A DNA stretch of 64,000 nucleotides from Rheinheimera salexigens (lineage in GTDB: Bacteria; Pseudomonadota; Gammaproteobacteria; Enterobacterales; Alteromonadaceae), in the NCBI RefSeq assembly GCF_001752395.1, contig NZ_MKEK01000001.1:3079509-3143508 (forward strand). Direction: 5' to 3'. Every line of letters begins with the position of its first letter. Positions within the stretch are counted from its first letter, which is position 1. Below the pieces are notes generated by a model, which was given only the letters and a program-made list of their open reading frames with translations, ran no database searches and was not told the DNA's origin. This document shows positions 2,576-3,454 of this stretch, piece after piece. Position numbers and translations under genes: made by a program.

Positions 2576-3454
2576 CTAATAGTGCGAACCAATTGATTTA
2601 ATAGAGAAATTTGAAGCGTACTGCGTTGCACCTGCTCGCATTGCAGCACGGAAATTCCCAGTTCCAAAATATACGCTGTCAAAAGTTGAATGTGCGCCTG
2701 CGAGCATACCGAAACCAGGAATAAAACTAAGGCCTATCTGGTGCGCCATATTCAGGTACTGGTTGCGCGAAAATACATTTTTGTGTGAATAATAACGACC
2801 ATCTAATCTACTTAATGACTTATAAGCGCTTTTAAAGAAATTATACCCACTCGGGTCGGTATAACTCATCGGGTTATTTAGCACATAGCTATAACGGTTG
2901 TAGTTCTGCAGGTTACCCGGTGCCTGAATAAACGGGTCGGCTTGCATAAAACGGCCTAAGTGCGGGTTGTAGGTGCGCCCGCCCATGTGAATAACCTCAA
3001 AGTCATTCACCATATTGTGGCCGGTGTAGCCTTTACTGGTGCCGGGGTTGCTGTAAGTAGTAAACAAGCTATTGGTGCTTACGCTGTACTGCTTACCCCA
3101 AGGATCGTAGATAAACTGCTGCAATACTGCGCCACTGCCATTAGTGATACTAATGGTCGAGCCCTGATTGTCTTTATGCAGGTACAGCTCGTCATGCACG
3201 CCGTTGCTGCGTTTGGTGATAACGGTGTTACCCACATTAAACTTATGCTCTACCACGCCAGATGGCAGCGTTACTCGCTCGTACAGGCCTTCGATATAAA
3301 ACGCATCGGTAGCTTGGCCGCTTCTAACATCGGTGCGCCGGTAAAGCTGGCGGTCAGTGCCATAAGCAAAGTCTGTGTAATTCGCCCCTTGAGTTACTTT
3401 GGATGGTTTATCAAAGGCGGTGTAGACAAAACTGCGCTTGCTGTGGCACAACAA
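2576..3454 (-). pseudogene. RHS repeat core fragment, truncated at both ends
   Basis: This 292-residue frame begins in the last YD-type repeats (FVYTAFDKPSKV, FAYGTDRQLYRRTD), runs through the RHS core (VHDELYLHKDNQGS, YDPWGKQY, GRFMQADPF, DPSGYNFFK) and ends in pretoxin sequence at a TAG (2576-2578). The same frame stays open beyond this stop as far as 1814, so the stop interrupts a single protein. The TTG at 3454 has no ribosome site. Complete RHS proteins of this type usually exceed 1000 residues and start with a signal peptide, so most of the N-terminal shell is missing. The missing start appears to be the remnant at 3411-3584. Confidence 0.85.
2832..3128 (-). repeat. RHS core repeat, copy 1 (direct repeat of 661-960)
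   Basis: This is the first of two same-direction RHS core copies. It carries the conserved path from VLQQFIYDPWGKQY to DPSGYNFFK and differs from copy 2 by scattered, mostly silent substitutions and one extra codon near the junction. It provides homology for swapping toxin tips. Confidence 0.85.

What the first reader, a model, noticed from the sequence alone, without database searches (positions are those of the whole stretch)
2576..2578. A single in-frame TAG splits an RHS toxin from its nuclease tip
The frame of the RHS core (from 3454) stays open past this TAG as far as 1814, with 30 codons and no other stop between the TAG and GTG 2488. The sequence before it (ASNFSIKSIGSHY) and after it (DQSGSGNIYFGGNYLT) reads as one continuous pretoxin region. 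So one point mutation separates the delivery core from the toxin domain while the immunity gene stays intact. This could be toxin inactivation, or stop-codon readthrough giving low-level full toxin.
Basis: seen in the sequence. Interest (0 to 1): 0.75.

Follow-up and report, generated by a model that had tools for sequence, protein, structure and literature searches.

The report
Decayed RHS toxin gene remnant
A premature stop codon does sit inside a bacterial RHS toxin frame, but the gene had lost most of its body as well, so this looks like an ordinary decaying copy and not a case of controlled stop-codon readthrough.

Summary
In detail: TAG at 2578..2576 (minus strand) interrupts a frame otherwise open from 3454 to 1814. 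Homologues carry core tail, pretoxin and nuclease tip in one frame, and a neighbouring copy, 96% identical in DNA, reads on there: a real nonsense lesion. The interpretation needs correcting. What precedes the TAG is no delivery core: against three full-length Rheinheimera RHS proteins, the 5' end (48 residues) lies at 3584-3447 and the match resumes near residue 1815 at 3439, in another frame. About 1,765-1,809 residues are missing and the start is out of frame, so the gene would be dead without the TAG. It heads an array of three damaged RHS cassettes inserted (7.1 kb) between map and glnD; 30 of 30 other genomes of the genus lack an insertion there. The tip has a VRR-NUC/FAN1-type predicted fold. 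Readthrough has no positive evidence; no CUA tRNA appeared in an incomplete survey. An orphan rhs module with an in-frame stop was described in 2011 (PMC3150448). Ordinary gene decay; low interest.

The parts
3411..3584 (-). 5' stub of the RHS gene: signal-peptide-like start (label recalled); 3584-3447 matches residues 2-49 of the R. pacifica RHS frame, then the stub runs out of frame to a stop at 3411
   Evidence: Alignment score 90 against R. pacifica RHS, 200 shuffles mean 22.6, maximum 35; tblastn E 5.7e-6
2579..3454 (-). RHS core tail plus first part of the pretoxin region; homology starts at 3439 (residue 1815 of the R. pacifica frame), in a frame different from the stub
   Evidence: TIGR03696 Rhs_assc_core 63.8 bits, cut-off 32.5; 68% identity over 274 columns to R. 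pacifica RHS; frames differ
2576..2578 (-). in-frame TAG inside the pretoxin region, 88 codons after the DPSGY motif
   Evidence: Sequence; homologues and the third cassette read on here
1814..2575 (-). rest of the pretoxin region and the nuclease tip; predicted VRR-NUC/FAN1-type domain at about 2137-1823; the database's gene call starts at TTG 2467
1243..1812 (-). putative immunity gene (label by position only), 189 aa, one base between it and the tip's stop codon; 30.5% GC
   Evidence: the protein search returned only its own entry
3..1175 (-). second RHS cassette, headless, continuing beyond the window edge (509 aa in L004); DUF4329-like tip
   Evidence: TIGR03696 61.4 bits; PF14220 DUF4329 E 4.2e-4, 20.7 bits, below its cut-off of 28.6

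Best explanation
The locus is the decaying remains of an RHS polymorphic-toxin gene and its tip cassettes, inserted between map and glnD. The head gene lost about 1,765-1,809 codons of its shell by an internal deletion that also put its start out of frame (shown by comparison with three relatives). The TAG at 2578..2576 is a further nonsense lesion in the leftover core tail and pretoxin (shown as a lesion). With no shell, no in-frame signal peptide and a stop before the tip, the toxin is neither delivered nor made as the RHS protein (inferred). The open nuclease tip and the ORF behind it persist as recent leftovers, or because the ORF protects against kin toxins or the cassettes serve as recombination stock (inferred). 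The order of deletion and TAG is not known.
For: Deletion and frame break: the 5' end at 3584-3447 and the core tail from 3439, in different frames, in agreement across three full-length relatives. The core piece matches only the three array copies in the genome, itself included, at E <= 0.001; the one other RHS gene (C1:2024274, 1,366-aa frame) was found by family models only. All three array copies are damaged: copy 1 as above; copy 2 headless; copy 3 with its 5' stub lacking the start codon, most of the shell missing, and a deletion and frame change in the pretoxin. Stops inside RHS matches occur elsewhere too: 3 of 74 match rows with the core piece and 4 of 76 with the downstream piece (one of the 4 is copy 3 itself). 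The map and glnD matches lie 18-42 bp apart in 30 of 30 other genomes of the genus and 7,087 bp apart here.
Against: The tip keeps an open frame and the PD...EVK residues shared by 5 of the 6 homologues aligned (the sixth, P0007, ends differently), and the ORF behind it is open, so the lesion is recent or the tip is under some selection. Upstream of the stop, copies 1 and 3 differ by 8 synonymous and 4 non-synonymous codons of 182, a pattern that may go back to a time of constraint. The deletion rests on comparison with other species; no sister strain was found.
Confidence: 0.9

Rival explanations
1. The tip is made on its own from a start after the TAG (the database's gene call is TTG 2467, with GGAG 11 bases upstream) and acts with the next ORF as an internal toxin-antitoxin pair, as reported for Salmonella rhs-CT genes.
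For: A 217-aa frame with the whole predicted nuclease domain; the ORF behind it is one base from its stop; internal expression of rhs-CT in Salmonella (PMC7043789, passages).
Against: Promoter-like sites in 1000-4300 do not exceed shuffles (6 against a mean of 7.6, sd 3.2) and none on the minus strand lies between 3454 and 2467. The GGAG falls in coding sequence. The ORF behind has no homologue in the search made.
Confidence: 0.12
2. The TAG is read through at low level, giving core tail plus tip as one protein.
For: The frame stays open for 253 codons after the TAG.
Against: An open frame is expected after a recent nonsense lesion. No stop anticodon in the 133 ARAGORN rows (many repeated) from the loci around the 58 tRNA matches (one search scored 150 of 289 candidates and no tRNA-Ile appeared, so the survey is incomplete); ARAGORN finds no tRNA at any of 9 hits of a CUA-loop pattern. 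The product would lack the signal peptide and shell.
Confidence: 0.02
3. The TAG is a sequencing or assembly error.
For: Reads were not available.
Against: The same break seems to be recorded on more than one contig; the gene has other lesions that one base-call error does not explain.
Confidence: 0.04
4. Core and tip are normally separate genes and the TAG is a normal gene end.
For: In the protein database the two pieces appear as separate proteins (P0122, P0002).
Against: Four of the nine database proteins aligned carry core tail, pretoxin and this nuclease tip in one frame (P0003, P0005, P0009, P0015); many matches to the pretoxin half lie inside open frames of over 2,000 codons.
Confidence: 0.01

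Closest known systems
Orphan rhs-CT/rhsI modules (PMC3150448, 2011; PMC3967940, 2014)
   Same: Fragments of rhs genes with a core tail, a DPxG-type boundary, a variable tip and a following small ORF; one Yersinia pseudotuberculosis orphan module is reported with an in-frame stop codon in its retained upstream rhs sequence (PMC3150448, Figure 9 legend, section 11).
   Different: No full-length main gene with this core was found in the genome, and the first cassette still has the 5' stub of an RHS gene, so it looks like the beheaded main gene itself.
Full-length Rheinheimera RHS proteins (R. pacifica L079/L042, R. baltica L080/L043, R. nanhaiensis L082/L044)
   Same: Same kind of 5' end and core tail (68%, 67% and 75% identity).
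   Different: They keep stop-to-stop frames of 2,348-2,390 codons; here about 1,765-1,809 residues are missing, and their match to the downstream piece covers parts of its first 109 residues only.
VRR-NUC / FAN1-type PD-(D/E)XK nucleases
   Different: Pfam score below the curated cut-off; here it is an RHS tip, not a repair enzyme.

Membership tests
RHS polymorphic toxin gene (intact) | RHS-associated core domain | tested here: met
   TIGR03696 63.8 bits against cut-off 32.5
RHS polymorphic toxin gene (intact) | Full shell of RHS/YD repeats in one frame with the core | tested here: not met
   About 1,765-1,809 residues absent and stub out of frame; RHS_repeat PF05593 lists no match in the island. 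Not filed as an intact RHS toxin.
RHS polymorphic toxin gene (intact) | Variable C-terminal tip continuous with the core | tested here: not met
   TAG at 2576-2578
Orphan rhs-CT/rhsI module | rhs fragment with core tail, DPxG-type boundary and tip, lacking initiation and export signals in frame | tested here: met
   DPSGY in the core piece; the 5' stub is out of frame with it
Orphan rhs-CT/rhsI module | Linked immunity gene | tested here: inconclusive
   ORF 1243-1812 is in the right place but the protein search returned only itself
Orphan rhs-CT/rhsI module | Located downstream of a main rhs gene | tested here: not met
   No full-length gene with this core found in the genome; copy 1 carries its own 5' stub. 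So copy 1 is filed as a decayed rhs gene, not as an orphan module proper.
VRR-NUC nuclease domain (tip) | Score over the family cut-off | tested here: not met
   PF08774 16.5 bits, cut-off 23.8
VRR-NUC nuclease domain (tip) | PD-(D/E)XK-type fold and motif | tested here: met
   Model residues 151-250 at pLDDT block means 63-85; FAN1 and VRR_NUC fill the top 15 rows; PD...EVK in the window's tip and in 5 of the 6 homologues aligned (P0007 ends differently). The motif's catalytic meaning is recalled knowledge. Works like this fold; not filed in the Pfam family.
VRR-NUC nuclease domain (tip) | Nuclease activity | not testable with these tools
   Needs a biochemical assay

The most novel reading that the evidence does not exclude
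After the main RHS gene was beheaded, the nuclease tip behind the TAG was released as a stand-alone gene, started internally near 2467, and with the following ORF of an unknown family now works as a chromosomal toxin-antitoxin pair; the TAG would then matter as the step that frees the tip from the RHS frame.
Probability: 0.08. Interest if true: 0.4.

Novelty: new member of a known kind. Interest (0 to 1): 0.12.

Why it matters
It shows that an arresting 'single stop in a toxin' can be one lesion among several in a decaying RHS array, and that the apparent delivery core was only the core tail. It adds an example of RHS cassettes decaying at a site that is uninterrupted in 30 of 30 other genomes of the genus, with a nuclease tip that still reads as an open frame.

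Tried and rejected
Rejected: 'separate genes' (homologues continuous); 'single lesion'; readthrough (no positive evidence). The suppressor-tRNA survey is incomplete: one search scored 150 of 289 candidates, and neither tRNA-Ile nor Ala-TGC appeared; the 133 ARAGORN rows come from 48 overlapping loci, count many tRNAs more than once, and were not matched one by one to the 58 places.

Led nowhere: plasmid collection, near mode (no match); PADLOC for two proteins and PHROGs for two, no families; promoter scan at chance level; Rheinheimera with rhs and toxin in papers (1 paper, on Pseudomonas aeruginosa, listing seen only). The sequence match to 4qbn is weak (E 0.029) and sits beside aquaporin rows at E 0.033-0.048. 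30 congeners, one genome per species, were compared, so sister strains could not be checked. The codon comparison downstream of the TAG (29 codons: 0 synonymous, 3 non-synonymous changes; the stop codon itself left out) is too small to test for relaxed constraint; copy 1 against copy 2 gives 24 synonymous and 6 non-synonymous of 100 codons. Of the three N-terminal alignments the R. nanhaiensis one was the weakest against its shuffles (82 against a maximum of 48) and starts later (residue 16). The nine database proteins were picked by me from the 120 listed of 197 hits.

Full report
Observation. On the minus strand the frame starting at TTG 3454 runs 292 codons to a TAG at 2578..2576. The same frame continues from 2575 for 253 codons to a stop ending at 1814.

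Is the TAG a lesion? Yes. Searched apart, the downstream piece matches single proteins that carry core tail, pretoxin and the same nuclease tip in one frame: P0003, P0005, P0009 and P0015 among nine database proteins aligned (the nine were picked from the 120 listed of 197 hits). Of the other five, P0004 starts after the stop position and P0019, P0038, P0094 and P0098 have other or more distant ends. In 196 genomes of the family, 40 hold matches to the downstream piece, mostly to its pretoxin half. A third cassette in the same array shares 671 bp at 96.3% identity spanning the TAG and reads on there.

What lies before the TAG? Not a delivery core. Against the R. pacifica frame the window keeps residues 2-49 at 3584-3447 and residues 1815 onward from 3439, in different frames; the other two relatives agree. 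The start of the RHS gene therefore runs out of frame to a stop at 3411, and about 1,765 (R. pacifica), 1,799 (R. baltica) or 1,809 (R. nanhaiensis) residues are missing. TTG 3454 is a formal start only. The TAG is one of at least two disabling lesions, and which came first is unknown.

Surroundings. The array contains three RHS cassettes on the minus strand. Copy 1 is the one described. Copy 2 (window 1175 to beyond the edge; 509 aa in L004) is headless with a DUF4329-like tip (below the Pfam cut-off) and a small ORF behind it. Copy 3 (outside the window, L004 12342-11581) has a remnant of the 5' stub without its start codon, a 54-residue shell remnant, the shared core tail and pretoxin, then a frame change and no tip match. 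The map and glnD matches are 7,087 bp apart here; in 30 of 30 other genomes of the genus they are 18-42 bp apart. The closest relative by both genes, G020 (94% and 97%), has 42 bp there. The core piece finds only these three copies, itself included, in the genome; another RHS gene, a 1,366-aa frame at C1:2024274, is found by family models only.

The ORF behind. ORF 1243-1812 lies one base from the tip's stop. The protein search returned only its own entry, so 'immunity' rests on position.

Readthrough. No suppressor tRNA was seen: no stop anticodon in the ARAGORN rows around 58 tRNA matches, though the list is incomplete, and no tRNA at 9 hits of a CUA-loop pattern (the reversed control pattern gave 12 hits). 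A read-through product would be core tail plus tip without shell or export signal.

Internal start. The database gene call for the tip starts at TTG 2467 (P0002), with GGAG 11 bases upstream in the sequence. Promoter-like sites do not exceed chance. Salmonella rhs-CT genes are expressed from internal promoters (PMC7043789, passages), so this stays a minority reading.

Known kind. Orphan rhs-CT fragments 'usually lack translation initiation signals' (PMC3967940, passages), and one Y. pseudotuberculosis module has an in-frame stop in its retained rhs sequence (PMC3150448, passages and section 11). A search for papers with rhs, in-frame stop codon, orphan and toxin listed 3, one of them on dog and human orthology. 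The window's case differs in that the main gene itself appears to be the broken one. Verdict: real lesion, ordinary decay.

Noticed in passing
window 3-1175 and L004 12682-14684: Second headless RHS cassette with an open 509-aa frame, a DUF4329-like tip and a small ORF with a lipoprotein-like start (label recalled) behind it; its own start looks like a scar of another pretoxin.
   Followed up: partly
L004 11577-12547 (left of the window): Third cassette carries a degenerate copy of the same RHS 5' end (89% over 64 bp) and a 54-residue shell remnant (residues 1496-1549 of the R. pacifica frame), suggesting repeated duplication and deletion of one RHS gene.
   Followed up: partly
L004 10702-17770: 7.1-kb insertion at the map-glnD junction, found in 1 of 31 genomes of the genus.
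   Followed up: yes
window 3631-3954: Small ORF (107 aa) upstream of the RHS stub; no Pfam family at E up to 0.1 and no PHROGs family at E up to 0.01.
   Followed up: partly
G000:C1:2024274-2026505: A second RHS gene (1,366-aa open frame) elsewhere in the genome, not matched by the core piece.
   Followed up: no
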